Positions 4,311 to 64,000 of a stretch of 64,000 bases of DNA are shown here, piece after piece. Source of the stretch: Climacium dendroides (lineage: Eukaryota > Streptophyta > Bryopsida > Hypnales > Climaciaceae); the NCBI GenBank assembly GCA_950106755.1, contig OX467089.1, forward strand, positions 24,595,345-24,659,344. The letters run 5' to 3'. The first letter of the stretch is position 1. Every line of letters starts with the position of its first letter. Made by a program: the position numbers and the translations under genes. Below the pieces are notes generated by a model. That model did not search any database. It had not been told where the DNA came from and worked only from the letters and a program-made list of their open reading frames with translations.

Positions 4311-4611
4311 GGAAAAGTAAGATTGGACCCCTACATACTCCACAAGCATGTACCGAATACAAAAGATAAGAGAATGGACACTTCCAAATACTTGGATTAA
4401 GCTCAAAAAGATACACGCTGAAAATAATGGGACGGATGTGAATGACCAAAAAGGTCCATCAAAACCCTACTTAAACTAAAACTAACATCATCCTAAAAAT
4501 CCCACAAAACATTCCTACTGGTCTGCTAGATTTCCGGTAAATCCTAGATCCTATTTTTCCGGCTTTTGACGGCCGGACTCCGGTATTGTTGCTACTCTAC
4601 ACTATTGCACA

Positions 4612-6725: not shown

Positions 6726-7213
6726 ATGAAAACCTCACACAATCTCTCCCTACCTCTCCTGCTTACAAAGATTCACTCCGGTAACCCCTGTACGATTGCA
6801 ACTCACACAGTCCCTTAGTCTACCGGAATTCTCAAAAAGCTAGGAAGACGGAAAGCACAGATGTAAGGAAAATAAGGAAGTACTCGTGTCTTCCGCCGGC
6901 TACAGTTCTCCTCTTATACTGGCTAGACGGACGGTCAGTCGGATGAATGTACGAGATAGGTTTCGCCCAGAGGGTGGTATCCTTCTAGGCGAAGCTTTTA
7001 GGGCCGGCGCCGTCATCCGATTTCCAAAACTTTCTAGGGTTCCGGAATTAGGTTTTTATACCTAATGGAATTTTTCCGGATCTGGAGATCCGGTATTCTT
7101 AAGTTTTCCTAATTTCCTATGAGAACTCAAAAACTTTCCTTTTTAAGGGGACAATTTTTGAGATTTCCCGTCAAATGCTAGTGTTTTGGGTCTAGCATGT
7201 GGGATCACATTCC
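6726..7213 (-). repeat. LTR-like 5' region of copy A
   Basis: The region matches 9573-10085 in order and wording. Shared landmarks on the plus strand are the CTAGCATGTGGGATCACA tip, a TTTAGGG-containing block near 7005-7045, a block with GGACGGTC near 6930, and CTCACACAGTCCCT near 6802. Its outer end is a short inverted repeat beginning TGTGGGA. It sits immediately upstream of the gag-like start on the minus strand, as an LTR plus leader would. I could not place the LTR/leader junction or a primer-binding site. Confidence 0.55.
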
Positions 7214-7661
7214 CACATCAGCATTTGGAAAAAGGCACGAATGGACCCACACCCACAAAAGTATGTACCACGTATAAAAAGAAAGAAAGTGGAATGCCTC
7301 CAAACGCTTTGGATTAAGCTTAAAGTACACACTGAAAATCATGGGGTGAGTGACCACAAAAGTCTATCAAAAACTAACTTATACTAAACCTATCATCATC
7401 TCAAAATCACACAAAACATTTCTACTGGTCCACTAGATTTCCGGTAATCCTCAATGAACATCTCGGGATATCCGGAAAGATCAACGTCAGATCCTATAAA
7501 TCAGGATTGGTGACCGGACTCCGGCACCGTTACAAGTATGTACAAAACTGCATCCTATTCTTCTGCATCCTATTCCTTAGGAGGAATAATTTTTTTAACA
7601 AGTTCTGGTATATCTTCTTCCGGCTACTCTCCGGAGGAAACACACCAGGAACTCTTGTTGC

Positions 7662-9572
7662 TTAATTTGGACCTGCAGAGATATCGGTTCCTCTGTCTGC
7701 ACTTAGGATTCCGACTACTGGAACTTCCGGACTTCCCCGAGAATCTCTCCGGGTAAACTTTAGGCGGGGAGAAGAGTGAACAGACCGAGTCCCCCTTGTC
7801 TCCGGAGGAGTACCTGTAAGGTCTATGACCAGGTTCTCTTGAAGGAGGTCTTCACTTCCCTTAGGTATGATGGTACCCCAATCCACTCTTGATCTCTCAG
7901 GTGGAGGTGATAGTTCTGGGACAAAGGGCACCACCTGCAACAGCTATTTCCGGAAGAACAATTTCCTCTGGAACCTGCAATGTATGGGTGGGAGAGGAAG
8001 GAGGAGGGTCTACCGGATTTGGCCCTGCGGATGCCAAACATGCCACCAAGTCTCGCATCTCCGCTCGCGAAGCATCCATCTTCTTTGCTTGCTCCAGCAG
8101 ACACTTGACTTTCGACACCCGGCTTGAGCTTGCGGCTATGTCGAAGTTGGCTTCAAACAACCGGGCCTTGTTGATGTAGTCCGCCGAGATCTCTAAGGAT
8201 TTCCGGAGCTGGGTAACACTCTGGCTTAGAGCCTCCGTCTGCCGGCGGTGTCCTTCTTCCACGACTTTGGCCTTTTCTTGGGCCGTCCGCAACTCGTTCT
8301 CCAACCGGGCGCAATTGGACTCCGACCCTTGAGTCCATTCCAGCAAATTCTGGTTCTCCACTCGTAGAGCGCCCAGCTCCGTCACCATCTTCTTCTAGTC
8401 TTGGATCAGAAGATTGTTCTGCTTCTCGGTCGTCACCAAAGCGTCCGTCTTCCGGAAGATGGCGTTCCGGTCGGTTAGTGTCATCTTCCGGCACACCCGT
8501 CTAAAGGTCTCCTCATAATTGTGGAGAATCTTCATGATGTCGTCAGCCCGCCACATGATGTGTTGGACCATTTCCGTAATATCCTCGTAGGGTGACCCCC
8601 TAGTCGGATCTCGGTCCTTTCTTCCTCCTCTTCTTCTGGAGGATTGGTCCGAGAGGGACCGGCCTCTATCTGGTCCAAAGCATCTTCCTTAGTCTACTTT
8701 GGAGCGGAAGGACTCCCCCTTGGCATCACCGATGGAGTCGCATTCCGTTGGGTCCGTTTCTTCAAAAGAATAGACTGCTCCTCTTCTTCCGTTTCCTCAT
8801 CATCCGGACCTTTCCGGTAAGAGGGTTCTTCTCCCCCGTACTTTTGGAGCTGAACCAACTCCAGATAGGCTTCCTCCTCATTTTCCGTGAGTAAGGAATA
8901 GTGGGAGTATAAGTGGGAGACATAAGCCAGAAGAGGGCTCCCACCTTTCTTCCCTTGCCGGAGAAAATGCACGAGATCCCCTACCAGCTCAAAGATGATG
9001 AACGCCTAGTCCACCATCATCTTCCCCTAGAGGCTTCCCAGGATGGTGGAGGCTACCTTGGCCACTACTCGTCTCGGCTAGGTCGAGTGGAGGATAGGGT
9101 TAAGAAACCCTACCACATTCTAGTATTCCGGGTTTACCAAGTGTAAGACCTAGTAACCCTCCTTTGGATTTGCCATCGTCCGAAATTCACCCTCCATGCA
9201 TTCTGGGTTCTTTTCCATCACCTTGTCCGGCACCACCCGGAACTCGTAGACGGCTCTCCACTCATCCACCGTCCACTGCTCAGGTTTCGCTCGGAGGGTG
9301 GTATCCAAAATACCACTTTCTAGTCGCAGTAGGTTCGCCACCAGACTCTCCTCCCAGATGTCCCAAGGGACATCCATCAATCCTATGCACCCCATATTGG
9401 TGAGATTCCTCCGGAAACGCTCCATCCGGACTTCATCGATTGGGATTTCCGGCACCACCCGCAGCACCGGAATCGTCTTCATCCGTGGTTGCGGCGCTAG
9501 AGTTGACTCGTCTGATTCCTCCGGCTCCTCCCTCAGTTTGCGCCGCATCGCCCTGGAAGTCATCACACACAC
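7662..9572 (-). pseudogene. Decayed gag-like coiled-coil gene, copy B
   Basis: This minus-strand gene starts MCVMTSRAMRRKLREE at 9572 and parallels copy A domain by domain. The shared parts are a basic start, the KTIPVLRVVPEIPIDE segment, the helical core (RRNLTNMGCIGLMDVPWDI), a coiled coil (about 8390-8200), the segment NKARLFEANFD and a C-terminal GSPEVPVVG segment. At least two frameshifts (before about 8390 and near 7940) and several stops break it. Differences from copy A are spread along the whole length, so the duplication is old or the copies came from different family members. Function is unknown beyond a likely structural role in a retroelement. Confidence 0.6.
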
Positions 9573-10085
9573 GCGAGGAGCCTCTCACAACCTCTCCCTA
9601 ATTCTCTTTGCTCATAAAAGGTCACTCCAGAACACACCTGCACGATCACAATTCACACAGTCCCTCAATATACCGGAAGTTCAAGAGATGGGGAGGTAGG
9701 AAAACTGAGATGTAGGGCAGCAAAAAAACAACTGTGCCATCTACTGGCTACAGTCCTTTTTTTATACTGGTCCAGACGGATGGACGGTCGGACGGATGAA
9801 TGAAAGTCCGGAAGAAATTTCGGCGGCAAAGCCTAACCTTTGTACGGCTTACGATTTCCGGCTTTTAGGGCTAGCGCCATCATTCGGTTTCCGGAACTTT
9901 TTAGGGTTCCAGAATTAGTTTTTTTACACCTAATAGGATTTATCCGGATCCGGAGTTTCGGTATTTCCCAAATCCTACTAATCTTCTATTAGAACTCAAA
10001 ACTTTCCTATTTAAATGAATAAATTTTAAAATTTCCTGTCTAATGCTAGTCTTCTGTGTCTAGCATGTGGGATCACACTCCCACA
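9573..10085 (-). repeat. LTR-like 5' region of copy B
   Basis: This is homologous to 6726-7213. It ends at the palindromic tip TGTGGGATCACACTCCCACA near 10068-10085, beyond which the similarity stops and sequence of the CACTA relic begins. It lies just upstream of the minus-strand gag-like start. Confidence 0.55.
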
Positions 10086-12325: not shown

Positions 12326-15300
12326 TTATTGTAGACGTTGCAATGCAATAGCCACCACATTAGCTTCTACTTCCACTGCATCACACAAGATGGGTGTTTT
12401 TGGTATGAGGTCTTCAGACAAGTCAGTGGCTTCGAGTCTGTGAAACTCTGTTGTCTTTCCAAGGGATATGCACTCCACTTCAGTTGTTCCTTCATGTTCA
12501 GAGAACAATCGAACACCTCTCGGTTCCCTACGGAGTACAACTTCCCATCCATGTCTGGCCTTGTCTGATGCAAAAAATACTTGTTCAATGTGCAGAGGGA
12601 ATGCAAACAACTGTGTTGAGTAAGGAATCAATCTATCGAAATTCACACTAGTGAATCCATACTCATCACGCTTCATAGTGGCTCCATTGCCCTTCATGTT
12701 TGCAACCACCCAATTGCAATATAATACCACTACCTCAAACTGCCCATAATCTACAGATAGGATTTCCTCCACCCACCCTACGTACTCTAGCTTTGAGTCC
12801 TTCATGTTTTTATCCTTTGCGCCTGCTCGACAAAGTTGTTTAAAGGTTGCTGCTATTCCTGAGTCCATTGTTGTCAATTTCTTCTCAACGCTTCGAACAC
12901 GAATGTGGTTTCCAAATGCATACATGGAACGATATGACTTGGCTCGATCTGATGGAGGTAACATTAGAGTCCTCACATCTGTGTCCACTTCTTCTGTACC
13001 GACTTCTATAGCTCGTAGCACTGCCTTTGGAAACCAAATATGAAACTTTTCGTCGCACATTTCAGTCAGGTACACTACTCGACTTTGATGTTTTTTACGC
13101 CTATACTCTTGTCGCTCTCTTTCACGATGGCGCATGTCATCTTCATGCCTCCTACGTCATTCAATAATTGAATGTGTGAGTTCATTCTGATTTACAAACC
13201 TAATACTACTTTGAGTCATACATGCACTCACAATACTCGTTGCAGTCATAAATGCAATTAGATTGTTAGGTTTAGTCACAAACGCAATCACTGAAGTACT
13301 TAACCAAAAGAAAAATATACTAATGTTGTTCTCACATAAATGTTAGCACATGACTATGTGTAGTTACAATTTCATATATGACATTTATATTGCATTACTA
13401 AATGGGAACACAAAGAGTGATGGATCTTTTTTCTTCTATGGGATGGAACAAAACATTATTACTGTCAACATTTGATTCTAAATGCTCTTATGCAGTAGGG
13501 GGGTTATTTCTTTCATAGGACCTCACCTCCTCCACTCCTCCAACGGTGCTGCATTGTTCAATACAAACTCGTGAATCCATTGTTGTAGTTCACTTGATAG
13601 GTGGCGTGCTCGTCCACTGCCTTCCAAAATTTCGTCATACATTGATGGATCTTCTTTGTCATCCCACACTCTTCGGGTGGTCACTGTATACTCCTGCATG
13701 TATTCAGTACAGAACCCCAATGCTTCCACCACAGTGTAGCCTTCAACCATACTACCCTCTGGTCGAGCCCGATTCCTGACATATCCTTTTAGTGTCTTCA
13801 AATACCTTTCAATGGGATACATCCAATGTGTATGAACGGGTCCGCAAATTTCTACTTCTTCCACAAGGTGGACAACTAAATGACTCATGATGTCAAAAAA
13901 AGATGGCGGGAACTCTTTTTCCAGCATGCATAATGCTATCACCATATCTGACCTCAATTCCTCAAGAGCATTGGTATCAATGGTCTTAGCACATATCCTC
14001 CTAAATACACGGCTCAACATAATTATAGCTTTTCGTACCTTCTTTGTTAGCACTGTACGAACATTGAGTGATAAAACTTGTTGCATGAGGACATGGTAGT
14101 CATGTGATTTCAAACCCTTCATGGTCCCATTCACATGTACGCGCTTCTTCAATTGACCCACATATTGGGTGGGTGTTTGCAATGTTCGAATTCCATCTAC
14201 GAAGACCTGACGTTCCTGTTTCATAAATGTATAAGATGAACGAGGTAATATGACGCTCTTAGGTTTTTTCCCAGGTATGGGCCAAAGATGTTTACGTACA
14301 CCTGCCTCCTTCATGTCCAAACGGACCTCCAAGGAGTCTTTTTCTCCGTACAAGGTCTTCAACATATTCTCGGTGATGTTCTTCTCACAATGCATGACGT
14401 CCAATGTGTGTCGAATCAAAAGGTCCTGCACAATGACTTCCGGGTGTTACAAATTGCATACACTATGACTATGTTCAATCATTTCATTCATAAAACTACC
14501 TCTAATATGTCACAATATTTTGATTTATAAGACAAAAATTGTACTAGACTAGTACATTTCTTATCACTTTGAGAAGCAATTTCATAAATTAAAAAAAAAC
14601 ATCAAATTCCCACACCCACTTACTTTCCAATACAGCAAGTCATACAGACATATCCTTCTCTTCACTCCGTGCTTGTGTACTGGATCTACCAAATTTTCTA
14701 CTCCATTTTCACGAGACTTTGTCAACCATTCCTCTCGCTCTTCTGCATAACGAAGTTGTTCTCGACCAGTCATCCTTCTAGGTGGAGGTCTTTCATCCAC
14801 TTCACCATCAAATGTACCCCTCTGTCGTCTCCACTGATGAGTCATAGGCAAGTATCGTCTGTGCCCCATATACAAGTTTTTTCTCAAGGCTTTAGAACGC
14901 CTAGTTACTATATGTGGCCCACATACTGGACATGCTCTATATCCTTTTGTTACTTGACCTGAGATTAATCCATATGTGGGAAAGTCATTCACCGTCCACA
15001 TGAGAATGCCATGTAACTTGAATGATTTCACTTCTGAATTTTTGCAAGATCCGTCCAAGCAATCAACCCCTTTCCATAGTTCTTGAAGCTCCTCAATCAA
15101 TGGTGCCAGGTACACATCTATGTTCTTCTCTGTTACACTCTCTTTTCCTGGAATGATTAATGTAAGCATTATAAAGAAATTTTTCGTCACCAACCAAGGG
15201 GGAAGATTGTAGTTGAGCATAATCACTGGCCAAGTTGAATGGCTAAGGCTTTGGTTCTGAAATGGATTCACACCATCCAATGCCAAGCCAAGTCTGACAT

Positions 15301-16174
15301 TGCGCTCGTCTTCAGCAAACCATTGCCACTTGTTGTTCACATGATTCCAAGCCTTGGAATCTACAACCGATCTCATCACCTTGTCTTTGCTTTTCCCACC
15401 TACATGCCATTTCATGAGCTCCGCCAACTGTGTATTGCTATACATTCTTCTTAATCGTGGAATCAAAGGGAAGTGTCTCAATACTTTCACTAGTACACTG
15501 TTGGAATTCTCTACATATCGGGATTTGTGGCAAGTAGGGCACTCTACTGTGTCTTGTAGTTCGTTGCGGAACAAACAACATCCATCTCTACACGCATGTA
15601 TGGAATTGTATGACAACCCCAACTTCATCAAAAGACTTTTGGCTTCATAAAATGATTTGGGAAGTGAATTCTCTTTTGGTAATATGGTCTCTGTCAACAA
15701 CTTCAGCAACTCATCAACAAAACTATTAGAGACACCATGAGTAGTGCAGCTCACTAGCAACATGAGCGTGGACATCAAACGGTTGGAATCGCTTCCCACG
15801 TACAAAGGAGTCTGTGCTTCTCGCAAAAGAACATTCATATCCACGCCAGTTACATCTTCCATGTTGGTTGAAGCCCCCTCTCTCTCCATCCGGTCATTGT
15901 TGGCATCCACTTGCTCGTCAAGATTGTTAGTGTATGAACCTCGTAAATCATTTATCCTCAAACCATCTTCATCTGTTGCATCCTCAAGTGTGTTCGTAAT
16001 AATATTCTCAATTCCTTCTCCACGGACATGTATGCTGTCATACTTGTTAAAGCACTCTGTTACCATACGGAGCACATCCAACTCTCCAACATTTGGAGAG
16101 GGGTCTCGTTGAACAGGCTCTCCTCGAACACTTCTTTGTTTATGCAATCGGAGGTCCACAGGAGCATAGTCATC
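12326..16174 (-). CDS. TNP2-type CACTA transposase (intact core)
   Basis: Three minus-strand exons, 16174-14624, 14425-13527 and 13151-12326, join with GT-AG borders and matching phases into about 1,091 codons without a stop. The first carries the TNP2 transposase core: the LALDGVNPF block with the first acidic residue, HSTWPVIMLNYNLPPW, and YRACPVC with its paired cysteines. The DVMHCEKN block begins exon two. Exon two holds the DUF4218-type region (EKEFPPSFFDIMSHLVVHL, PIERYLKTLKGYVRN). Exon three holds the DUF4216-type region (LYCNWV, SDKARHGWEVVL). In the nucleus the protein would bind and cut the CACTA ends. The exon at 16174 starts at a TACAG acceptor with DDYAPVDLRLH and has no start codon, so at least one upstream exon is required. 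The natural partner is the SET or zinc-finger exon at 16669-17638. Confidence 0.9.
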
Positions 16175-16668
16175 CTGTAGTAGTCCATGTGTACCACATG
16201 CACATATAAGTTTATTGTAAAATTAATAATTGGAACATGCAAACTTGTGGGACGTGATCATAATAAAATATAGCATTCTGTACTGCTGGATAATGATCAT
16301 GAACATTTCAATTAGCACTCCAAATAGGATCTCTTAAGTCAAAGAAATGATTATCAATTTTAGTTTTCATAAATTGGCAAAAAATTCAATTTTCATTAAT
16401 TCATTGTATGTTTAGTATGAATTAAAAATAATTATCATTTTCCCTTACTACGTCATGAATACACAATTTCATGTTCATGATCTACTTTCCCATAAGGCCA
16501 AAACACATGTAAACAATTGACACTATCTGGCACTCTACCATCATATTCCACCACATATAGTGGGCCTCAACAAGATTGCTAACTACACAATATGACTGAA
16601 TACAAAGTGTGACTACGCATAGTTTTTTCGAAAAATTCAATGATCCTATTCATTTGACAATACGTTTT

Positions 16669-17638
16669 TCAATTTACATAGTAATGTGCATAGAGTTCCT
16701 CTCCAGCCACAATATCCCTTGACGCTATTGTCATTACATATCCCCACTCCAAGTTGTTCCATGGTTTGGGCTGCATGCGAAACTCCCACATGACGTTCCC
16801 TAACTCCTCTCGACCTATAGAACTATTAATAAATCCGGCTACATTTCCCTTCAATACATCTCCGTCTATATACAAGTCCGGCTCAACTTCCATCACATAT
16901 GACTTTATGCGAGGCCGTCCCTCCTTCAAAATTTTATACTCTGCTAGTGTGTACTGGGGTCCTACAAAGGGAAGTAACTCTTTCCCTTTTTTCACGGGTT
17001 GCAGGGCAAAAAGACCCCAACCCATGAAAGGAAACGTTGACACCTTCACATCCCAATTTCTTTGCCAATAGGAAAATATTGTTAGTTTCGGTATGGGACC
17101 ATCACACCACTGTCCATCATACACATTTGACCTCCACTTCTCTAAAGCCACTACTCTTGTAGACGTTCCTTTCAGTGTGCCACTCGTTGAAGTATGTGTC
17201 TCTCTTACAAATGTTTGTAAAGAAACCAAAGAGGAGGCTTCCACATAGGGTCTCCACAAGGCCTACACAAGTCACTGAAACTTTAAGAAAACAATGTAGA
17301 TGTATATCATTGACAAAAGCATACTGTTTTTTTAATAAACAATTCATTATTTTCAATGTCCTTACCAAGATAGAGGCCGTAAAAGCTGGGTCCCTCTTCT
17401 TGCTGCGAAGATGTTTTCGAATTGTACGTCTATCAAGCACTTTTCCTCCTGCACACTTCATGTAGGGGCATGGGTACTTTGTTAGACGCATGTTATCTGC
17501 TTGAATTTCTTCTTCTTGCCATAATCGTAGCTCTTGCAAACTTTGAAGCTCCCCCTCAGACATACTGTGCACTTCCCTGATATGCACTACAAAGAAAATG
17601 TCAATGTCATATATTTCAATCACTTCTGCATTAGTCAT
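16669..17638 (-). CDS. Zinc-finger and SET-domain exons, probable transposase N-terminus
   Basis: Exon one (17638-17366, 91 codons; the start may instead be the Met at 17563) has a short Cys/His motif: KYPCPYMKCAGGK, then RRTIRKHLRSKKRDP. Exon two (17262 to 16678, or to the TGA at 16669 if unspliced) contains a SET-like methyltransferase fold: GWGLFALQPVKKGKELLPF, SYVMEVEPDLYIDGD, GNVAGFINSS, NVMWEF and RDIVAGEELYAHY. The order matches SET proteins. However, the usual NHSC is NSSI, so catalysis is uncertain. A donor at 16678/16677 (TAT|GTAAAT) is in phase 0 with the TNP2 exon acceptor at 16174, which would give one zinc finger-SET-TNP2 protein of about 1,377 residues. Without that splice the gene ends VN-stop as a separate protein of about 288 residues. 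Confidence 0.75.
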
Positions 17639-17777
17639 AATTGAACATTAACATGACTATTGCAATATGGCTATGACTACTCCAGAGTCATAGAAATTGT
17701 TTACAATGACTACTTTCATTCATGTGAATGCCTAAACTGTACTCGGTATAGTCTTAGAAGTCTACGTACAATTCAAG

Positions 17778-31984: not shown

Positions 31985-32949
31985 AACATGGAATATGATT
32001 CATTGTAGTCATATTGTGTGTCATCAAAAAATATGACTGAACGTAGTCATATTGTACATCACTACAAAATGTAACTCCACTAATGACTCATATTGTACAT
32101 TACTCGAAAGTATGACTCATCCTGGTCATATTCGACATAATAATAAAATATGACTCATTGCAGTCATTTTTTAATGTTACTAAAAAATACGACTCACCAG
32201 TCATATTTCACATCACTACAAAATATGACTGACCGTAGTCATATTTTACATCATTATAAAATATGACTCACCGTAGTCATATTTCACCTCACTGCAAAAT
32301 ATGACTGACCGTAGTCATATTCCACGTCACTACAAAATATGACTCATCGTAGTCATATTCCATGTTACTACAAAATATGACTCACCACAGTCATATTCCA
32401 TTTCATCAAAAAATATGACTCAGCAGTCATATTCCACATTACTGCAAAATATGACTCGCCGCAGTCATATTCCACATCATTGCAAAATATGACTGACCGC
32501 AGTCATATTCCATGTTACTGCGAAATATGACTCACCACAGTCATATTCCACGTCATCAAAAAAATGACTCATCGCAGTCATATTCCACGTCATCAAAAAT
32601 ATGACTGATCGCAGTCATATTCCACGTCATCAAAAAATATGACTCGACCCAGTCGTATTCCACGTAGGATTTTTTTATTTGCCCGGGCAACCCAAATAAA
32701 AGTCAAAAATCCCCTAGGAAAGTCAAAGTATACGCCTAGTTGGCATACTATGGCTAAAAATGGGTATTTATACCCCTCGGAAAATATGACTGCCAATATG
32801 ACTGATGTCTGAAGCGATTGCTTCTAAACGACTGGAGTCAGTCATATTCCGAGTCATCTACAGTGATTTCTGCGTCAGTCATATTTTTCGATTTTACGAC
32901 TGCTACCAGTCATATTTTGCAATCATAAAACACTACTTTTGTTGTAGTG
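31985..32949. repeat. Right subterminal 38-bp hairpin array and TIR
   Basis: About sixteen to eighteen units of roughly 38 bp repeat the pattern AAAATATGACT, a short spacer, AGTCATATT, then CCACATCACTAC or similar. Each unit is itself a hairpin because AATATGACT and AGTCATATT are complementary. The array ends at about 32650. It is followed by the conserved block CGTAGGATTTTTT...GGGCAACCCA, a CAAAGTATACGCC block and the terminal CTTTTGTTGTAGTG. The same end structure occurs at 33655-34335 and 60480-60980. Confidence 0.9.
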
Positions 32950-32952
32950 TTA

Positions 32953-34335
32953 GATTTTGCTTCTTCTTGCCTCCTAACTTTTGCTTTTTCTTCCATCTTA
33001 GGTTTTACTTCTTCTTCTATCTTAGATTTTGTTTCTTCTTGCTTTTTAACTTTTGTTTCTTCTTCCATTTTAGGTTTTTCTTTTTCTTGCCTCTTAGTCA
33101 TATTTTGCAGTCATATTTTGCAATCATAATGTCACTTAATTTTTGCTTCTTTTTTTTTGCTACTTTTTGCTTCTTAGTCTCTCTATCATCATTGTTATTT
33201 TTTGGGGTTATTTATAATTTTTGAATATATAATGATTATAACTTTTTTTTTATCTTAAACATATTTACATATTTTGTAGTGCATTAAATCTTTAAAGTTT
33301 AAATTATATTGTTCATTTATTGAAAACTAACCTTCTTGTTTATACATGTAGGCATTGGAGATTGAAATGAAGTTATTGAAGGCTACTTGCAATACAAAAG
33401 AGGTAACATCTTTACATTTTTGTTGGAATATAGGTTCTATAAGTATGTGGAAATATACATATATAAAAAGCCATTGCGATATATTTTGTGTTAGTAATTA
33501 ATAAATGTACGTTATTGAAAAAAATCACATTTTTTTTTGTATTTGACTTTCTAATGTGATTAATTTTTGCCCATTTAAGAAATCATATGTATTCATTTTT
33601 AATTAAATGGATTCTCTTACTTAATTACTAAATTATGTTGATGTATGACTATACATAGTCGATTTACAAATCATCAAAAAATATGACTGAAAAGAATTGT
33701 TTTACACATTATCCAAAAATATGACTGGAAAAAGTCATATTTTGTGTTACTGCAAAATATGACTCACCATAATCATATTTCACATCACTGCAAAATATGA
33801 CTCACCACAGTCATATTCTACATCATTACAAAATATGACTCACTATAGTCATATTCTACATCATTGCAAAATATGACTCACTATAGTCATATTCCACATC
33901 ATTGCAAAATATGACTCACTACAGTCATATTCCATGTCATCAAAAAATATGACTCACTATAGTCATATTCCATGTCATCAAAAAATATAACTCACTATAG
34001 TCATATTCCATGTCATCAAAAAATATAACTCACTATAGTCATATTCCACATAGGATTTTTTTGTTTGCCTGGGCAACTCAATAAAAAGTCAAGACCCCCC
34101 TAGGATAGTCAAAGTATACGCCATATTGGCATACTATGGCTAAATATGGGTATTTATACCCTTCAACTTATATGACTGCCAATATGACTGATGTCTGAAG
34201 CGACTGCTTCCAAACGACTGAAGTCAGTCATATCCCAAGTCATCTACAGTGATTTCTGCGTGAGACATATTTTTTTATTTTACGAATCACTGCAGTCATA
34301 TTTTGCAGTCATAAAACACTACTTTTGTTGTAGTG
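32953..34335. mobile_element. Right-hand relic of the older CACTA element
   Basis: The pyrimidine tract interrupted at 11012 resumes here. It is followed by a 51-bp exon-like segment (33352-33402), a second hairpin array (about 33655-34030), the GTAGGATTTTTTTG...GGGCAACTCA block and a terminal CACTACTTTTGTTGTAGTG ending at 34335. This is the right half of the element into which 11013-32949 inserted. It carries no transposase and was probably a non-autonomous derivative. Confidence 0.8.
33352..33402 (+). other. 51-bp exon-like segment conserved between relics
   Basis: CATGTAG precedes GCATTGGAGATTGAAATGAA, and the segment ends AAAGAG before GTAACA, so it has splice-like borders and a length of 17 codons. 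The relic at 59.1-60.98 kb has a close counterpart starting at about 60144 after ATATGTAG (GCATTAAAAATTGGAGCAAA). It may be a mini-exon of a relic transcript. No function is known. Confidence 0.4.
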
Positions 34336-36480
34336 TGTGATTCAGAAATCTTCGACCAGAAGTCAAAAATCATCCCTTCCAGCCTTCAAAGAATGTCAAT
34401 ACCATATGACCATGACATTTTGGAAAGGGAGAATTTTGGTTTTACAAATTGTACAAATTATACAAAATTTGAGAATGAACAATAACAAATTTGAAGCCCT
34501 TGCCAACAAATCTTGAACGAAACCTACTACTAGAAAATTCAAAGCCTCACAAGGTTGTAAGTACTCGTTTGTACTTAGTTTGCAGTAAAAATCTAAAATA
34601 TTTTGATTTAGCAACTTACAGTTGAAGTAACTCCAAAAGAAGTGTTGACATGAAATTGTGAAATGATTTGTAAAAGTGAATTACTTAAATATTTTTTGAT
34701 TTCAGGGCTATAGTATTGCACGGCCATGTTAGTATGTCACCATGTTGCATTCTTTAGAGAATTACAGTGCATATGTTTATATGGTCAAACTATAAATGAA
34801 AACGGTTTAAAATGAAAACAAGGTTTCATGTAGCGAAGGGGAAAGCTTTATATGGCATCCCTACATTTGTATTCTTTGTAATTTGAAACCTCCAACCAAA
34901 TTGTAAAGCAAAATATTTAATTCAAATTTCATTGATTTCCATAAGTATCGATTTGAAGGTGAACTAAATTCATTGGAATTTCAGAAAAATTGAATTCCAA
35001 GTGAATGTGAAATTGAAGTCAATTAGGATTTAGATTCATTTTTAATTTGGATTAAACATTGTATTTGCATTTGACATAATTGGCAACTACATATTCTATT
35101 AGATTGGAAATTGAAGTAAAATATAGTTTCATTGGGGATCATACCTCAATCTAAAAATCTATATTGAAAATTGAATTATTGATTTGTACTTTACATTAAT
35201 AAAATTAGAGAAAATTAGAATTCGATATGGCTTTCATGTGTACTACAATACATTTCTAAGAAAGGTTGGAAAGCTCAAATGATCAAATTAATATTCCAAC
35301 AAAATTGGAATTGAAATTCTAATTGCAGTACGCTAGTGCATTGTTTTTATTACAATTCCAAATGAATGTGTTTGGGAAATCAATTGAAGTTCTACATTAG
35401 AAGGTTATTAAAATCAAAAATTCAAATGTAATTTGAATTACTTGAGTTGCATTCAAATTCAAATTCAAATTCAAATTCAAATGTAATTTGAATTACTTGA
35501 GTTGCATTCAAATTTGTTACTATTTCCCTCCTACATTCCATTTCAATTTGAATGCACATTCCATTTCAAATTGCATTTGCATGTCATGTTCAATTTCAGT
35601 TTGAAAGGCAATTTCAATTTGGAAAAATGAAAGTCAAATTCAATTGCAATGATAGTATGACACCCACTTTAAAATTCACATTGGAATATTGACTTTAATA
35701 TACATTGATTTCAATCAATTTAAATGAAAATAGAGACTTCTACATTGAACCTGTTGAATTCATAATTCAACATCATAATAAACAAATTTCTGGGGAGGGT
35801 TTACATTGTATAAGTGAGCTTGAAACAACCTTCACTCATTTTAACTTTCTAACTTTCAAGACTTCAAGTCCATAAATTGAAGAATTCATGAAGTTGAACA
35901 AATTGTTTGTGTTTCCTAGAGAGTATAACAATCATTATAGATTATTAGATTAATGAAAACAACATTAAATTCCTAATGCCTTACATTTGTAATTGACTTA
36001 TGAGTTATGACTTATTTGTTCAATATTGTCACTGTAGTATTCCAGATTATTTCCCGTATGTGACATGCAAAAGTTTACATTTAACAAAGAATCATAATTT
36101 TATGATTATAGAAAATGACTGAAGACTTCACTTTTCTTCAATTATATATATTTTTAAATCACCATGAAAATTCTCTCTTTCTCCCTCTATATATATTTAT
36201 AGTTTGTACACAAAGTACTCATAAGATGTAGCAATGAGTCAATTACAAACATATTTGATGAAGAGAAATATCAAAATTCTAAAAGGGAGTAGACTTCACA
36301 ATTGCAGGTAGGATTTATGGTTTTTAGGGTATAGGGTTTAGAGTATGGAGTTGTTTTTTCAATTTCAGATTGAAGGGGCAGAATTCCCGCCTTCAGTTTT
36401 TAAAGTTCTGATGTCCTCACCTAAAGATAGTGACGAACTGACAGTGTGCCACCTGACTTCCTTGGATTCTCTAGTTACAA
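34336..36480. repeat. AT-rich spacer with a 55-bp direct repeat
   Basis: No gene is seen. The only clear structure is a direct repeat starting TTCAAATGTAATTTGAATTA at 35421 and again at 35476, separated by a run of AAATTC hexamers. The surroundings are rich in ATTTGAA/TTCAAAT words. Confidence 0.6.
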
Positions 36481-39331: not shown

Positions 39332-40835
39332 TTAAACTAGAGCTCCATAGTGGCAGAAGTATTCATCCGGTATAGGCCAATGAAACAAAGAAGTAAATCG
39401 CGAAATCACTTGCGCCAAACTACTATGGCCATTGGAACCATCTTCGCAAAGTCTCCCCAAATACACTTGAAAGACTTGTGCTAACTCATGATGCGAGTAC
39501 AACACATGTTTTTTTGTTTCCATGACCTTGCAAATCGTAGTATGTCTTCGACATACATGTACTATTGATCCTCTGAGCTAATTGACCAATAGCAAATTCT
39601 TCGGACTTAATGGTAACTACAGGTATGTTCTCCACATCCTCATCTCTTCAATGTACATATGTAATATTTGGATCGATCCACCACCTCCTCCTCAAAGCTT
39701 CGTCTCGATCACTTGTCGATGTGAATGTATACAATGACTTCATGGATTCCGTACTAGCCGTGGTCATCCCCCAATCGCAAACTCCAATGAAAACCCGCGA
39801 CTCGTCTTTCGGAAAATGAAACATGATGTTGTTTGGAGAAATGTCGTTGTGGAGATGTCCAACACCATGTACCGCATTCATAATATGCAGCAGTGCCCAA
39901 GCAAACTCCGTACGCTTTGTTCTCCATCGCTTTAGACGATGAGCACAAATGACCTCTTCATCACTAATTTTGGGATCATACATAATGCGAATGGCGATAT
40001 TGTTTGGATAATCGTTATCCATTCTCAACATTTCAAGCAAAGTACTACCATTCCACCACAATGAATAGCCTTCGTTTCGAACTGTGTGGACTACAACGAA
40101 GCATATGACTCCATCGTACGGAATCCGCACCGCCATCGATTCAGTTTGGTGTTCCATCTTTGCAAGCTCAGGTCGTCGAACTTCTTGGAGAGACACCTTT
40201 GCTACAAATTCCCAATGTGGTTGAAGTTCAAGGCATCCTTTGATTCGCACCCTACGAATTGTAGCATAGCCCCCGCGTAGGATTATGTTATCTTGTGGAA
40301 TCACCCTTGTGGTTCCCGGGAGCGCTATTAAGTGGCGCAATGCAACTTGCATATTTACTATGCCTTCGTAAGTTGCCCACCAACCCAAAATTCCACCTCT
40401 ATTTCATCTGGAAGCAAATGGTCTCATCCGACTCATGAACATGTCCACTTTTGTAATCACGTGTGTGAAGGCTTCATCATCAATGCGATGAACCTTACCA
40501 AATTTTTCCACGATTCCTTTTGCATTCCATAGTGCATCATACGCCTGCTTGTCCAACCAGCTAGTAAAATTCTTCTTTTTCATTTCTTCATACCACTCCT
40601 GCACCCGCAACGCTTCATTCATCATATCGCCTTTGAACTTCTCAATGCCCTCCTCTTGATAACAAACATACTTAGAGTCAAGAGATATGGTAGTTTCCCT
40701 CTCATAGAATTCAACAATGAATTTCCTCAAAAACGCGGTGCAAGTGTGTGAGGGGTTGTCCATGACGTCGGCTTCATTAGGTTCCTCCAAAACCTTCGCT
40801 TTCTTCTTCGCCCTTGGCATCTTGATGAATGTCAC
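39332..40835 (-). pseudogene. Decayed protein-kinase-like gene in a mobile-element context
   Basis: The minus-strand frame from 40835 (or the internal Met of MPRAKKKAKVLEEP) reads an N-terminal helical region of about 140 residues. It then crosses a TGA at 40404-40406 and enters a kinase-like domain: a Gly-rich loop (RGGYATIRRVRIKG), the Lys strand (EFVAKVS), a catalytic loop HNDISPNNIMF (HxDxxxxN) and VCDWG in place of DFG. A WWIDP segment near 39670 sits where the end of the activation segment would be. A second stop at 39648 and a frameshift precede a further open piece to 39332 (HHELAQVFQVYLGRLCEDGS). The catalytic Asp and Asn are present, so the ancestor was probably active. Serine/threonine specificity and the captured source are unknown. 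It begins just inside the CpG-rich arm. Confidence 0.65.
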
Positions 40836-59099: not shown

Positions 59100-60982
59100 A
59101 CAATTGTTGAATTGTGAGTCCATTTCATCAAAATTGAGGTGAAATTGTTGGGCAATTTAAAAAAAAATAAGAATACTATTGTTCAAAATTTTAAAATCCT
59201 AGCTACTATGTTTGGAGGATTTTGAAATCCTAGCCATTACTTTTTAAAATTTTAAAATCCTAGTAGTCATTTTTCAAGGTTTCAAAATCCTAACTATCAT
59301 ATTTAGGGTTTTAAAACCCTAACTTCTACTTCTTTAAAGTATTGAAACCCTAGTCACTACTTCATTTGCCTCCTCTTCCTTATCATTTGTTTCTTTCTAA
59401 CTCTTACTTCTTGCCTCTTATTGCTTCTTCTCTTTTGTTTTTATTGTCTTATTGTTGTTGTCTCTTAGTTATTGCTTCTTAATTTTTGTCTCTTGGTTAT
59501 TACTTCTTAGTTGTTATTTCTTAGTTGTTCCTTCTTAGTTGTTGTCTTTCTTAGTTGTTATTTCTTAGTTATTGTCTTTTGATTGTTGCTTCTTAGTTGT
59601 TGTGAGTCTCTTAGTTGTTGCTTCTTAATTGTTATGAGCCTCTTAGTTATTGTTTCTTAGTTGTTATGAGCCTCTTAGTTATTGTTTCTTAAGTTGTTAT
59701 TTTTTAATTACTGTCTTTTAGTTTTTGCTTATTAGTTGTTGTTGTTTTTTAGTTGTTCTTTCTTAGTTGTTGTCTTTAGTTGCATTTTAATTTTTTGCCT
59801 CTTATTGTCTTTTAGATCTTGCTTTTTTATTGTTTTTTTAATTCTTGCTTCTTTTTTCCTTTTATTGCACCTTAATTCATATTATTCTTGCTTCTTGTTG
59901 CTTTTTATTTGTTGCATCTTAGCTTTTATTTGTTTCTACCTCTTAGCACTTGCTACCTTGTGCTTCTTATTTTTTCATCTCCATTATTATTCTCTTTTAT
60001 TTCTTGTAATTTTTAAAGACATAGTTGTTTTGACTATTTTTTCATCCTCAACTTGTGCTACATATTTGTGTTGCCATAAAGCTTTGAAGATTAATCTTTA
60101 TTATTCATTCACTAAAATTAACCATCTTGATTGTATATGTAGGCATTAAAAATTGGAGCAAAGTCATTGAAGACTATTTACAATATAATAGAATCAACAG
60201 CCACACATTATTGTAAGTAATATGGACTTTACAATCATGTGAATATTCAATCATAGAATGAGTCATTGTAAATTTGTAATATATTTATTATATTTATTAT
60301 TAGTGACTAATAAATGTCTTTGAAAGATTTGCATTTCTTTTGCATTTTTCTTTTTAATATGACTACTTCTTGTACATCTTGTAAATTATGTATACTCATT
60401 TTTAATTGCATGAATTCTTTTATTTAGTAGCTAAACTATATTGATGTATGACTATATGATTATATTTAGTCACAAAATTACTAATGGCATTTAGTTGAAT
60501 TGCTATATCAACCAAAATATGACTCACAATAATCATATTCTACATCAACCAAAAATATCACTTACAAGAGTCACATTATACATCAAAAGAAAATATCACT
60601 TACACAAGTTATATTCCAAATCAACCAAATTATGACTCATAAGAGTCACATTCAACATTAATAAAAAACATGACTTACAATTATCATATTCCACATCAAC
60701 AAAAAATATGACTCACCATAGTCATATTACACATCAATAAAAAAATATGACTATATATAGTCATATACTACGTTAGCCAAAATGTGACTCATCTTAGTCA
60801 TATTCCACATCAACTAAAATATGATTCATTGTAGTTATATTCCATATCAGCAGAAAATATAATTGCACTTAGTTATATGTCACGTAGGATTTTTTTCCTT
60901 GCTTAGGCACCTTAAGAAAAAGTCAAATTGTAAAGGTAGTCAAGATGTATGCCACGTAGACAAAATACAAGATGTGTATTTT
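59100..60982. mobile_element. Third CACTA-family relic
   Basis: In order it has AAAATCCTAGC/AAACCCTAG words (59190-59350), a pyrimidine-rich CTTAGTTGTTxCTT tract (59390-59990), the mini-exon-like segment at about 60144, and a decayed hairpin array (ATATGACTCAC...AGTCATATT, 60510-60880). Last comes the CACGTAGGATTTTTT block and a TATGCCACGTAG block. The structure matches 10470-11012 plus 32953-34280. The right terminal CTTTTGTTGTAGTG is missing. The similarity stops where the retroelement gag frame begins near 60983. Confidence 0.8.
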
Positions 60983-62230
60983 ATGACTAGAAGCAGGACA
61001 CCATTTGCTGGAGACACTACTTTTGAGTCATCAAACACTAGCAATGTTGTACCGGTACGTCCTCGAAGTCAAAGGCCCTTCTTGGGTAGAAGGATCCCAA
61101 GTGATTTATTTTCAAATTCTAGCAAAGAGGGAGCAGATTGGGTAGAAGATAGTGAGCGTGATGAGGGAGAAAATTTACCCATCATTGTAGTCGACCATGG
61201 GGTGAGACTTGCTCATAACGAATCAATATTTACGTGGGACGAGATGGCTACATCGTATGGAGGTGTTGATCGAGGAGTTCGGTGGTTTTCTAGTGCCAAT
61301 GGCACCATGGAAGCGGACGACTTCCACAGGGAGTTCACTATGTGGTGTAAACTCCAAAGGTCATGAAACACTAGCTTTAATCCATATATGGTGTAGAGGG
61401 CGTTGTCCGGGTGTCTTGAAGGGGCACCATTGGCAGACTATGGGGAATTTGAGCTTGCTCATTCCACAGAGATCTTGGTCTAGCGGGATTACTACACCCC
61501 AAATTATGTTGATGTTTGGGGAGGAGGATCCACTACCATAGTAACTATAAGTGGGGGAAAGAAGGAAGAAGGGGGCGTAAATACGGGAGGCCAAGAGGTC
61601 ACTGTGACCACGAGTCCAGTACCAACACCAGATCCACTTCCCTTCAATCCCACGGCTCAATTCTTTTTGCAGCTGCAGCGAGACTACTATGGGCAGAGGG
61701 CCAACAAAATGAAGTCACTTCATACGTTTGTATATGGAAGTGATGAGTCGTTGCGAGAGGCACATTCAAAACTAAGGTGGTTAATTTCCGCCACCCACGG
61801 AGTAATTGAGCAGCAAGCTGTTCAACATTGGTATAGTATCTTGGATAAAGAGTTAAAAACTCTTGTCCGAGGTGATGCCTTGAGGTTGGGTGTTCCACCT
61901 ACCTTAAAGTATATTTTTGAGACCTCCGAGAGGATTGAGATTAATCTCTTGGAGGAAAAGGCGGCCATAGGGTTCTTGCGCAAGGAAGAGAAACCGCAAA
62001 AGAAGACCAAGATGGCAAGGGCGAGCATTCCAGCTCATACTAGAGATGCCAACATTACATGTTTCAATTGTAGAGGTGTTGGTCATAGATGGCAAGATTG
62101 CAAGAAGACATCTCGCTAAGATGCGGTCAAAATTAACGCGTTTTGCTCTAGTTGCAGAATCAAGGACCATGTGGAGGCCAATTGTTGGAAGGTTCATCCT
62201 AAACTCAAGCCCAAGAACACAAAGTAGGTG
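60983..62230 (+). pseudogene. Decayed retroelement gag with two zinc knuckles
   Basis: The frame starts MTRSRTPFAGDTTFESS at 60983 and stays in one register to beyond 62220. Nonsense codons break it near 61364, 61394, 61481, 62117 and 62225. It contains a capsid-like segment (about 61640-61960), then a basic stretch and two CCHC knuckles: CFNCRGVGHRWQDC (62060-62101) and CSSCRIKDHVEANC (62144-62185). Two knuckles in tandem bind nucleic acid in LTR-retroelement gag proteins. No 5' LTR or leader is visible upstream, because CACTA relic sequence runs up to the start. The element is therefore truncated at its 5' end or recombined. Confidence 0.75.
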
Positions 62231-62302
62231 AAGAGCAATGATTCCAAGGAAGCCAAGGCCACGAGAGAAGACTAGAAGTCATAGAAGTCGCGTTTCAAAG
62301 AA

Positions 62303-63690
62303 TTGGAGGCTAAAATGGTAGCTATGAGAGTCACTTTTGCTAAGGGGGCAACTTCATTTTATGTAGAAGGAAGTGACTATATGTTGTGTGGCATAGCTGA
62401 TACTCGAACCACACCATTGGATGCTTATGCAATGACTAGAAATAAGACTATAGTGCACAATACACCACGAGGAGCAAGTTCAGGGTTGGATCTACAAAGA
62501 GGTGAAGCCAACCACCAAGCTAAGCTGCTAGAGTCATTCACACTTGAAGATACGGTGCCCACCTCTTCTATAGTACCATTACATCACAATTCGAGTAGTC
62601 AATAGGTTGCTTGGGCTCTACATGGTAATGGACAAGATAGAGGTGTTCTTTTTGATGCAGCAACCGCTGTTTGTCAAGCTCCTTTATTCACAGCATCCAT
62701 GATTTCCCAAGCACAATTTAGTACTGCTACAGTGTTTCAATTGGCAGCTACTATGTGTGAAAACGGTGGCTCAGCACCGGTGAGCTCCATGGAAGCTGTG
62801 CTTGAGCCATTGGCAGTGAGTGGACTGAAGCAAAAGGACTTTTATTAGCCGCTACTCGGGTCAAAACTATGCTAGCATGTTGGGCCATAGAATGGTCCTC
62901 CACTACCCCAGGGGTAGTGGTATTGGACAACTCCCAGTTGGGCCTAAAGGGAGAGTATTTACACCTCAACGGGTACTATTGGATTCCGGTACACAATCCT
63001 TGATGTTGGAAGTGTCAGCAATTGAAGGCTTGGGTTTGACTGAGGATGTGTCGAAAACGTGTCCGTCGACGATTTGTACTTCAATGGGAAGGACAAAGCA
63101 AGCGAAGGGCATCACGAGGGGCGAGTTAGTATTGTAGTTGCGTCAAGATGATGTCAAGGACGCTAGCTTCATGAAGGTGAAAGCCATAGTCATAGAGGCT
63201 AAATCATATGATGTTTTGGTGGGGGCTATGGTATTGTATCCTATGGGATTCACCTTGGACTTCTGGAAAGAAACAACATACTATAGACCGGGATGGCAAG
63301 CAGGAGATGGACGCATAACTCAACTGCCAATTCGATTTATACGAGTTCTTACTGATAATTTAGTTGATCTCTATTGTTTTGCTGGACTTATAGATGAGGG
63401 TCAACTATGGATCAAGGAGGATTGCAAAGATCTTCTTATTGTCGCTTCGTTGGATGTCATTGAGCACCATGATCATCACGATGGTGAGGACATTGGGGGC
63501 CACATGTTGTACCGACCCGGCATGGAAATGGCATGGGATAGTACCACGGGACTACAAGAGGCGGCCAACAAAGTTACCCAGAAGGTGTGGCAACAATCAT
63601 TATTACCACAAGAGAACGCAGTGGTTGAAGGTGAAGACAACGATGGTCCTTGCTTGGACACTTCAACAATCCAATGGAAACCACCAAAAG
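62303..63690 (+). pseudogene. Retroelement aspartic protease region and linker, decayed
   Basis: From 62303 the gag register continues as an open linker to about 62605, then shifts frame before about 62877. The protease core is VLLDSGT at 62973-62993 (the LDSGT-type catalytic Asp). It is followed by EVSAIEGLGL and, after a TAG at 63135, AIVIEAKSYDVLVGAMVLY and FTLDFWKETTYY. These are the conserved end of the protease and the spacer normally placed before reverse transcriptase in gypsy-type elements. An acidic linker (about 63430-63690) leads into the methyltransferase. The protease would cut the polyprotein. The stop and frameshift show this copy is dead. Confidence 0.7.
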
Positions 63691-64000
63691 AAGGTATAAT
63701 TTTTTTGGAGTTGTTTGGTGGCATTGGCACAGGGTTGGCAGCTGTATTGTAGGTGGGTATGAAGATGAAGCATTATATTTATGTTGATAACGATGATATG
63801 GCACGGCAAGTGGTCAAGCACCATGCTCGACGTTTATGTCGAGCATTTTCAACCTTATTATACACATATGCTATCATAACCGCGTTTTCTGCATTGCCAA
63901 ACAATATATCACTCATCTCACTCCAAGACATTGTCTGGTTGGGGGCGATAGACTTGGTTATTGCGGGATGGCCATGCCAAGGTATGTTTATGACTGGCAA
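63690..64000 (+). pseudogene. C5-cytosine DNA methyltransferase domain in the retroelement (cut by window end)
   Basis: In the same register as the protease, the domain opens FLELFGGIGTGL (motif I, the AdoMet-binding FxGxG type). It goes on to HYIYVDNDDMARQV (motif II-like acidic strand end) and SLQDIVWLGAIDLVIAGWPCQG at 63972-63980, with the catalytic Pro-Cys-Gln of motif IV. These hallmarks in this order define C5 cytosine methyltransferases. A TAG at 63750-63752 sits between motifs I and II, so this copy is not translated through. Motifs VI-X and any reverse transcriptase lie beyond the window. Methyltransferase modules in LTR elements are known to me from dinoflagellates and a charophyte alga. 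Whether this is the same lineage cannot be told here. Confidence 0.82.

What the first reader, a model, noticed from the sequence alone, without database searches (positions are those of the whole stretch)
60983..64000. Plant retroelement polyprotein with a cytosine DNA methyltransferase after the protease
Seen: two gag zinc knuckles, an LDSGT protease and, in the protease register, motif I (FLELFGGIGTGL) and motif IV (DLVIAGWPCQG) of C5 methyltransferases. Known: LTR elements with such enzymes were reported from dinoflagellates and a charophyte alga (from memory). Inference: the enzyme may methylate element or host DNA, for example to lessen host damage or compete with silencing. Presence in this genome may extend that class of elements into land plants.
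Basis: partly seen in the sequence, partly recalled or inferred. Interest (0 to 1): 0.93.

Follow-up and report, generated by a model that had tools for sequence, protein, structure and literature searches.

The report
Plant retrotransposon carrying a DNA methyltransferase
A decayed copy of a plant jumping gene carries its own enzyme for methylating DNA, and its relatives in this genome and in mosses and liverworts show that this is a real, long-lasting element family that seems to make the enzyme together with its shell protein.

Summary
The window end holds a decayed Ty3/gypsy-type element: gag with two zinc knuckles, protease, then a C5 DNA methyltransferase (DNMT) that continues past base 64000 with its remaining motifs and a reverse transcriptase. 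This copy lacks its left end, RNase H and integrase. Of 43 PF00145 matches examined in the host genome (50 found), 33 are of this element type, in two subfamilies. Better copies read gag-protease-DNMT-RT-RNase H-integrase-PHD finger. The DNMT is of DNMT3 type, not rearranged like DRM, and conserved between species (pN 0.18, pS 0.80). Named relatives occur in Marchantia, Calypogeia, Sphagnum and Monoraphidium. New features: (1) a UAG with the tobamovirus-type CARYYA context lies between DNMT and RT and is the only stop shared by all 12 subfamily B copies, so the DNMT is probably made at Gag level; (2) split direct repeats (A1...B1-A2-B2) although the integrase is of DDE type; (3) a second DNMT position, before the integrase, in one clade. 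The kind was known from Klebsormidium (PMC5890265); my searches listed no land-plant report. The host species is unidentified. What the DNMT does is inferred, not shown.

The parts
60984..61366 (+). gag, N-terminal piece; ends at an in-frame stop; left border of homology with the other copies at 60981-60995, so no left repeat or leader in this copy
   Evidence: ORF; 66-81% protein identity to the matching piece in L018, L021, L024, L029; border
61484..62119 (+). gag, C-terminal piece with zinc knuckle 1 (about 62054-62107)
   Evidence: Pfam zf-CCHC E=0.0016, below cut-off; 79-88% identity in L018, L021, L024, L029, and 64% over 44 residues in L019
62144..62185 (+). zinc knuckle 2, CX2CX4HX4C, same frame as knuckle 1, after TAA 62117-62119
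   Evidence: read by eye
62829..63137 (+). aspartic protease, LDSGT at 62979-62993; ends at TAG 63135-63137
   Evidence: weak Pfam Asp_protease_2 E=0.043, stronger in relatives
63138..63689 (+). protease tail and spacer between protease and methyltransferase
   Evidence: 76-78% identity over the whole piece in five subfamily A copies, L019, L021, L022, L024, L029; ten listed public proteins cover at least 97% of the query at 54-58% identity, one more (P0083) at 33%
63690..64000 (+). DNMT3-type C5 methyltransferase, first third: motif I 63702-63737, motif IV 63951-63983, TAG at 63750-63752; continues outside the window to about L010:650
60507..60926 (+). tandem repeat block just left of the element; not part of it (also at 31992-34342 and beside another copy)

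Best explanation
It is a decayed, truncated copy of a Ty3/gypsy-type retrotransposon family whose polyprotein is gag-protease-DNMT / UAG / RT-RNase H-integrase-PHD finger. Shown: domain order, copy families, relatives in bryophytes and an alga, DNMT3-type sequence and predicted fold, catalytic residues kept, conserved UAG with CARYYA context, split direct repeats. Inferred: ribosomes mostly stop at the UAG and make Gag-protease-DNMT, and a minority read through to make RT, RNase H and integrase. The DNMT is therefore packed in the particle in Gag-like amounts, meets the new double-stranded cDNA, and methylates its cytosines (CpG most likely) before or at integration. New copies then arrive already marked. 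The likely gain is that a quiet insertion harms the host less and is not met as naked foreign DNA. The PHD finger on the integrase probably helps to choose chromatin for integration. My odds: identity of the element 0.97; DNMT made at Gag level by readthrough 0.75; cDNA as main substrate 0.45.
For: Downstream motifs and RT. Domain table for better copies incl. PHD in both subfamilies. 33 of 43 examined PF00145 matches are of this type. By profile, DNMT3A is the best PDB match (E=1e-23, 87 bits, against 45 for 4onj, labelled only DNA methyltransferase and a tobacco DRM as I recall, 37 for HaeIII, 36 for DRM2, 34 for HhaI, 24 for the tRNA-C38 enzyme; no DNMT1 or CMT among the 56 rows at E<=0.01). 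AlphaFold model (pLDDT 76, pTM 0.79): the 50 best Foldseek hits listed (of 147 at E<=0.001) are all DNMT3A/3B structures. Catalytic-motif columns invariant or nearly so in the 12 aligned rows. Purifying selection between species: DNMT pN 0.177, pS 0.800. UAG: of 70 codon positions with a stop in any of 12 subfamily B copies, one is shared by all 12; context TAG-CARYYA in 11 of 12 B copies, 4 of 5 readable A copies and L072. CARYYA 3' of UAG is the tobamovirus readthrough signal, 32% (TMV) and 11% (BNYVV) in planta (PMC2754532, passages).
Against: No methylation, expression or readthrough data exist here. The DNMT evolves faster than RT, RNase H and integrase (72% against 87-90% amino-acid identity to L072; protease 80%, PHD 81%), so constraint is looser. 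Within the young B copies mean dN/dS is about 1 for DNMT (1.18) as for other domains (0.71-1.23), as expected for dead copies. No copy fetched from the host has an unbroken frame: the 12 B copies carry 5-14 in-frame stops each. CpG content of the elements (o/e 0.54-0.67 in the host copies measured) is like the window's 0.59, so no extra trace of methylation. In yeast the Klebsormidium DNMT showed no activity; the authors call that inconclusive (PMC5890265). In one clade, which holds Monoraphidium, the DNMT lies after RNase H, so Gag-level supply cannot be general.
Confidence: 0.6

Rival explanations
1. The DNMT acts in trans on host chromatin: it methylates host genes or small-RNA loci and so blunts the host's silencing or defence of the element.
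For: Gag-level supply would give enough enzyme to act outside the particle; DNMT3-type enzymes methylate de novo (established knowledge; two SymbioDIRS DNMTs did so in yeast, PMC5890265).
Against: No sign of it in the data held; the domain is fused to gag and protease, which keeps it in the particle unless cut out; CpG content gives no trace.
Confidence: 0.2
2. The domain's value is binding, not catalysis: it works as a nucleic-acid chaperone or as an assembly unit (DNMT3 domains form oligomers) of the particle, with methylation a side effect.
For: It is encoded on the gag side of the UAG, and evolves faster than RT, RNase H and integrase.
Against: Catalytic Cys, the Glu of ENV and the Arg residues of AHRxR are invariant or nearly so in 12 aligned rows at 36-72% identity to the first.
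Confidence: 0.15
3. The DNMT benefits the host: it slows the element down, and elements that hurt the host less persist.
For: Proposed for the known elements in PMC5890265 (Discussion); copy number here looks modest (50 PF00145 matches including host genes, a lower bound).
Against: Hard to separate from self-methylation of the cDNA; no data here.
Confidence: 0.15
4. A chance neighbour or assembly artefact: a host DNMT fragment next to a gypsy remnant.
For: The window copy has several stops and frame breaks and was cut by the window edge.
Against: Protease lies before DNMT in all 18 element loci of 10 kb and RT after it in 16 of them; same in other species; host DRM, DNMT3-like and MET1/CMT-like genes are separate and different.
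Confidence: 0.01

Closest known systems
KnitGypsy-Dnmt3 of Klebsormidium nitens (de Mendoza et al. 2018, PMC5890265; first part of the text, sections 10 and 11 and passages read)
   Same: Gypsy domain set, unrearranged DNMT3-type domain in the polyprotein, intronless multi-copy, repeats arranged as in DIRS elements although the domains are Gypsy (figure legend), purifying selection on DNMT
   Different: Hosts include land plants; PHD finger after the integrase (the word PHD is absent from that paper's main text); UAG-CARYYA between DNMT and RT (no 'readthrough' in that text and its one 'stop codon' is about Symbiodinium); sequence kinship not testable, no KnitGypsy sequence was at hand
SymbioDIRS-Dnmt3 (same paper)
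   Same: DNMT3-type domain in a retrotransposon polyprotein; split repeats
   Different: Tyrosine recombinase, dinoflagellate host; ours has a DDE integrase (rve)
SymbioLINE-Dnmt (same paper)
   Same: Retrotransposon-borne C5 methyltransferase
   Different: LINE type; its DNMT is an orphan lineage, not DNMT3
Chromoviruses (Ty3/gypsy with a chromodomain on the integrase; recalled)
   Same: Chromatin-reader domain after the integrase
   Different: PHD finger instead of chromodomain, plus a DNMT
Tobamovirus-type leaky UAG (PMC2754532, passages; PMC4132726, passages)
   Same: UAG followed by CARYYA
   Different: Here it separates gag-protease-DNMT from RT in a retrotransposon

Membership tests
DNMT-bearing LTR Gypsy elements (KnitGypsy-Dnmt3 type) | Gypsy RT, RNase H and rve integrase in the polyprotein | tested here: met
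   Pfam over cut-off for RT, RNase H and rve in L027 and L029, RNase H and rve in L020; the window's own copy keeps RT only
DNMT-bearing LTR Gypsy elements (KnitGypsy-Dnmt3 type) | DNMT3-type domain, not rearranged, inside the same polyprotein | tested here: met
DNMT-bearing LTR Gypsy elements (KnitGypsy-Dnmt3 type) | DIRS-like repeat arrangement A1-coding-B1-A2-B2 | tested here: met
   full pattern in L017, L023, L027, the three copies examined for it; B1-A2-B2 in L018; L028 has an aberrant right end; the window's copy and L029 keep only one B repeat on the right
DNMT-bearing LTR Gypsy elements (KnitGypsy-Dnmt3 type) | DNMT under purifying selection | tested here: met
   between species pN 0.177, pS 0.800 over 12 B copies against L072; not seen among young B copies, mean dN/dS 1.18 over 55 pairs
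DNMT-bearing LTR Gypsy elements (KnitGypsy-Dnmt3 type) | Sequence clustering with the Klebsormidium elements | not testable with these tools
   no row named Klebsormidium in the lists
Ordinary Ty3/gypsy LTR retrotransposon | Equal LTR at both ends | tested here: not met
   left end A1 only, right end A2-B2, B1 before A2
Ordinary Ty3/gypsy LTR retrotransposon | TG...CA termini and short target duplication | tested here: inconclusive
   TGTC...GACA in the four copies read at both ends; 4-bp duplication exact in 2 of 4 (L023, L027), 3 of 4 bases in L025, 2 of 4 in L017
DIRS order (tyrosine-recombinase elements) | Tyrosine recombinase instead of DDE integrase | tested here: not met
   rve in L020, L027 and L029; no separate search for a tyrosine recombinase was made
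DNMT3 family | Best match to DNMT3 among solved C5 methyltransferases, motif order I-IV-VI-VIII-X | tested here: met
   but in the tree the element clade sits on a long stem and no DNMT3 is its sure sister
DRM (plant rearranged DNMT3) | Motifs VI-X before motif I | tested here: not met
   element order is I first; the host's own DRM genes (L012, L026) do show motif X before I, by my reading
Type I leaky stop (UAG-CARYYA) | UAG followed by CARYYA, reading frame continuing | tested here: met
   16 of 18 copies that cover the place; frame unbroken from DNMT to RT in 3 of 8 copies examined (L020, L029, L072), the others having frameshifts
Type I leaky stop (UAG-CARYYA) | Measured readthrough | not testable with these tools
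   needs a reporter assay

The most novel reading that the evidence does not exclude
One ancient gypsy lineage of the green plants captured a DNMT3-type enzyme once and has kept it across chlorophytes and bryophytes, moving it once within the polyprotein. In land plants it makes the methyltransferase in Gag-like amounts through a tobamovirus-type leaky UAG, so the particle itself is a methylating machine. It integrates through a DDE integrase from a circular DNA whose internal CA-NN-TG junction (B1-A2) is the cut site, which would explain split repeats with TG...CA ends.
Probability: 0.35. Interest if true: 0.88.

Novelty: new variant of a known kind. Interest (0 to 1): 0.74.

Why it matters
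Plants silence retrotransposons by DNA methylation, so an element that brings its own de novo methyltransferase is a paradox that can be tested. In the papers I saw the case rested on algae and dinoflagellates; relatives in Marchantia and Sphagnum bring it into land plants, Marchantia with good genetics. The leaky UAG predicts that the enzyme is made in large amounts, which is a concrete, measurable claim. The repeat layout with a DDE integrase bears on how such elements copy themselves.

Tried and rejected
Chance or artefact: rejected. Bacterial-type or DNMT1/CMT-type enzyme: not favoured by the profile search. Captured copy of the host's DRM: rejected, motif order differs. Extra CpG depletion as a trace of self-methylation: not seen. 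Selection test within the genome: uninformative, young copies decay neutrally; the first NG86 run gave no value for DNMT against L072 because synonymous sites are saturated, so raw pN and pS are given. Ordinary LTRs were first assumed; the shared sequence beyond the supposed 3' LTR led to the split-repeat layout. A piece first labelled RNase H of the window's copy proved to be the terminal B repeat. Integrase and RNase H trees were too weak to tell capture from relocation on their own. Viral contigs gave 16 distant hits, not followed up; of 4 genome-contig hits only L072 (a contig in a cyanobacterial MAG, which I take for plant contamination) was used. Host species: not identified; a cysteine-synthase exon of the window matches plant-type enzymes best (species of the best chain recalled), and DRM- and DNMT3-like exons are present, which fits a non-flowering streptophyte but does not prove a land plant. 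The genome search answered once; the 15 other calls failed, so relatives without DNMT could not be sought.
Full report
WHAT IS THERE. The window end (60984-64000) carries gag with two zinc knuckles, an LDSGT protease and, in the protease register, motifs I and IV of a C5 methyltransferase, with in-frame TAGs at 63135 and 63750. The host genome is held (unnamed, 412.6 Mb, 123 contigs; window = C38:24595345-24659344). Read on past the window, the same copy has motifs VI-X (L010:71-712, my reading) and a reverse transcriptase (L010:1069-2033), then is cut short: compared with copy L029 about 2.2 kb with RNase H, integrase and PHD finger are missing, and it ends with a terminal B repeat at L010:2385. 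On the left, homology to the other copies starts at the gag ATG; the tandem repeats to the left (60507-60926) also occur at 31992-34342 and beside copy L019 and are not part of the element.

COPIES IN THE HOST. PF00145 gave 50 matches, a lower bound. 33 of 43 belong to the element type: own, 18 of the 20 long loci (L013-L025, L027-L031) and 14 of the 20 short ones. The other 10 are host genes by my reading of the motifs: two DRM (L012, L026), five DNMT3-like exons (L040, L046, L047, L054, L055), one CMT-like (L048) and one MET1-like gene with two matches (L032). Among the long loci subfamily A (own, L018, L019, L021, L022, L024, L029) is about 84-91% alike in DNA and subfamily B (12 copies) about 94-97%. 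In the 18 element loci the protease lies before the DNMT in all 18 and RT after it in 16; L022 and L024 show no RT in the stretch fetched. The order gag, protease, DNMT, RT, RNase H, integrase, PHD finger is seen in both subfamilies; Pfam hits over cut-off for DNMT, RT, RNase H, rve and PHD are (PHD in L027, B, and L029, A), while zinc knuckles and protease stay below cut-off.

WHICH METHYLTRANSFERASE. A single B copy matches DNMT3A best in the PDB (E=1.8e-7; HhaI 5e-3; 4onj, a DRM as I recall, 0.027). A profile of 12 rows gives DNMT3A 1e-23 (87 bits), 4onj 5.7e-11 (45), HaeIII 1.4e-8 (37), DRM2 2.3e-8 (36), HhaI 34 bits, the tRNA-C38 enzyme 24 bits, and no DNMT1 or CMT among 56 rows at E<=0.01. 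The predicted fold (pLDDT 76, pTM 0.79) has only DNMT3A/3B structures among the 50 best Foldseek hits listed of 147 at E<=0.001 (TM 0.58-0.65 by query length). In a tree of 36 rows that I chose, all 29 element DNMTs form one clade (100/99) apart from human DNMT3A, a host DNMT3 piece, two host DRMs and three distant PF00145 proteins that I took for bacterial. The outside rows are few and short (DNMT3A 172 residues, host DNMT3 79), so the tree shows that the element DNMTs belong together, not which DNMT3 is their sister.

RELATIVES. (141, 37 and 57 proteins at their thresholds, candidate lists capped in the last two) give named rows in Marchantia polymorpha (many, e.g. Mp_8g17980, Mp_4g09160, Mp_2g26090; Mp_7g09570 with PHD), Calypogeia fissa, Sphagnum troendelagicum, S. 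fallax (BDL97_09G086500) and Monoraphidium neglectum (a chlorophyte, recalled). Two layouts occur: DNMT between protease and RT (host copies; Marchantia P0161 and P0169; Sphagnum P0192; metagenome rows P0144, P0203, P0204 with RT after DNMT), and DNMT between RNase H and the integrase (P0146, P0196, P0197, P0198, P0201, P0202, P0206 with RT or RNase H before DNMT; P0145, P0149, P0199 with the integrase zinc domain straight after DNMT). PHD fingers occur in both layouts (L027, L029, P0204; P0196, P0197, P0202). In the DNMT tree the second layout is a clade (98/97); its place inside the first layout rests on weaker branches (93/80 and 83/90) and on the choice of outside rows. That suggests one capture and one later move; the RNase H and integrase trees are too weak to confirm it.

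SELECTION. Within B copies mean dN/dS is near 1 in all domains (DNMT 1.18 over 55 pairs, gag 1.06, protease 1.23, RT 1.08, RT end and RNase H 0.71, integrase 0.85): these copies are young and decaying, with 5-14 in-frame stops each. Between B copies and L072, an element in a contig filed under a cyanobacterial MAG (I take it for plant contamination), pN and pS are 0.177 and 0.800 for DNMT (12 copies), 0.141 and 0.697 for protease (12), 0.074 and 0.705 for RT (12), 0.057 and 0.746 for RNase H (11), 0.055 and 0.834 for integrase (11), 0.118 and 0.619 for PHD (7). So the DNMT is kept, but less strictly than RT.

THE LEAKY STOP. Gag, DNMT and RT share one frame in L020, L029 and L072, with one stop between DNMT and RT; in five other copies examined the frame is also shifted. 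Over 2249 codons of the B frame, 12 copies show stops at 70 positions: 54 private, 14 shared by two, one by four and one by all 12, and that one is this TAG. Its context is TAG-CARYYA in 11 of 12 B copies (L013 differs), in 4 of 5 A copies that cover it (L021 has TAA) and in L072; the window's copy has it at L010:1009-1017, a pattern that on its own is expected 0.6 times by chance in that 9-kb locus, so the weight lies on the shared position. CARYYA after UAG is the tobamovirus readthrough signal, with 32% (TMV) and 11% (BNYVV) readthrough in plants (PMC2754532, passages). Several relatives from other sources (e.g. P0176, P0182, P0184, P0189) are proteins of 1330-1376 residues that end 110-135 residues after the DNMT, as this predicts; only the proteins were seen, so a contig end is not excluded. 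So in these plants the DNMT is most likely made with Gag, in excess over RT.

THE ENDS. B copies are A1 (about 343 bp) - coding - B1 (107 bp) - A2 (343 bp) - B2 (107 bp); A1 and A2 are 95.9-99.6% alike in six copies (two read in part), B1 and B2 96-97% in the three examined. Subfamily A copy L018 shows B1 (about 355 bp, split by an insert) - A2 (about 325 bp) - B2. Outer ends are TGTC...GACA in the four B copies read at both ends. The B1-A2 junction in the five copies read has two bases between GACA and the start of A2, namely AC, AC, AC, GT and GC. Target duplications of 4 bp are exact in 2 of 4 copies. A G-run (AGGGGGGG) lies just before B1 in L017, as a polypurine tract would. Split repeats of this kind are known from tyrosine-recombinase elements (recalled), but the integrase here is rve. 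PMC5890265 says of KnitGypsy-Dnmt3 that its repeats are as in DIRS while its domains are Gypsy (figure legend). Inference: reverse transcription gives ends B...A, a circle forms, and the integrase cuts a CA-NN-TG junction, much as integrases trim two bases at retroviral ends. This is untested.

KNOWN OR NEW. The kind, a gypsy element with a DNMT3 domain and DIRS-like repeats, is known from Klebsormidium (PMC5890265; part 1 of 7 of the text, sections 10 and 11 and passages read). [quoted passage not shown] A Marchantia methylome paper counts five methyltransferases of the plant classes (PMC5784723, passages). Word searches in four more papers on plant or moss methylation, transposons or genomes found no such element (PMC6453930, PMC10538959, PMC9946827, PMC7466625). 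I saw no report from land plants in the listings (the last shows 10 of 1,276 papers); most listed papers were not opened and the library lacks most subscription journals. New here as far as I saw: land-plant hosts, the PHD finger, the leaky UAG that puts the DNMT with Gag, and the second DNMT position.

Noticed in passing
window 12329-17647, - strand: A CACTA-type transposase set (PF02992 E=4e-75, DUF4218, DUF4216) with a SET-domain ORF (16672-17262, PF00856 E=1e-9) and a weak U-box-like ORF (17120-17647) beside it: a DNA transposon that may carry a histone methyltransferase.
   Followed up: partly
window 31992-34342 and 60507-60926: Tandem-repeat blocks with units around 76 bp, about 70-83% alike, also next to element copy L019; probably parts of another repeat family.
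   Followed up: no
window 39651-40403, - strand: Kinase-like ORF with weak Pkinase match (E=1e-4, below cut-off) and an HNDISPNN stretch.
   Followed up: no
window 4341-10085: Two diverged copies (70-72%) of a large stretch in tandem, with ORFs of unknown kind on the - strand.
   Followed up: no
L040, L046, L047, L054, L055: Several DNMT3-like exon pieces on different contigs; the host seems to have a small DNMT3 gene family or pseudogenes.
   Followed up: no
L028 right end: A2 is followed by an inverted and then a direct copy of B, an aberrant end that may tell about replication.
   Followed up: no
L029 right end: Only one B repeat and no A2 on the right, as in the window's copy; either recombination between B1 and B2 or a one-repeat circle as source.
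   Followed up: no
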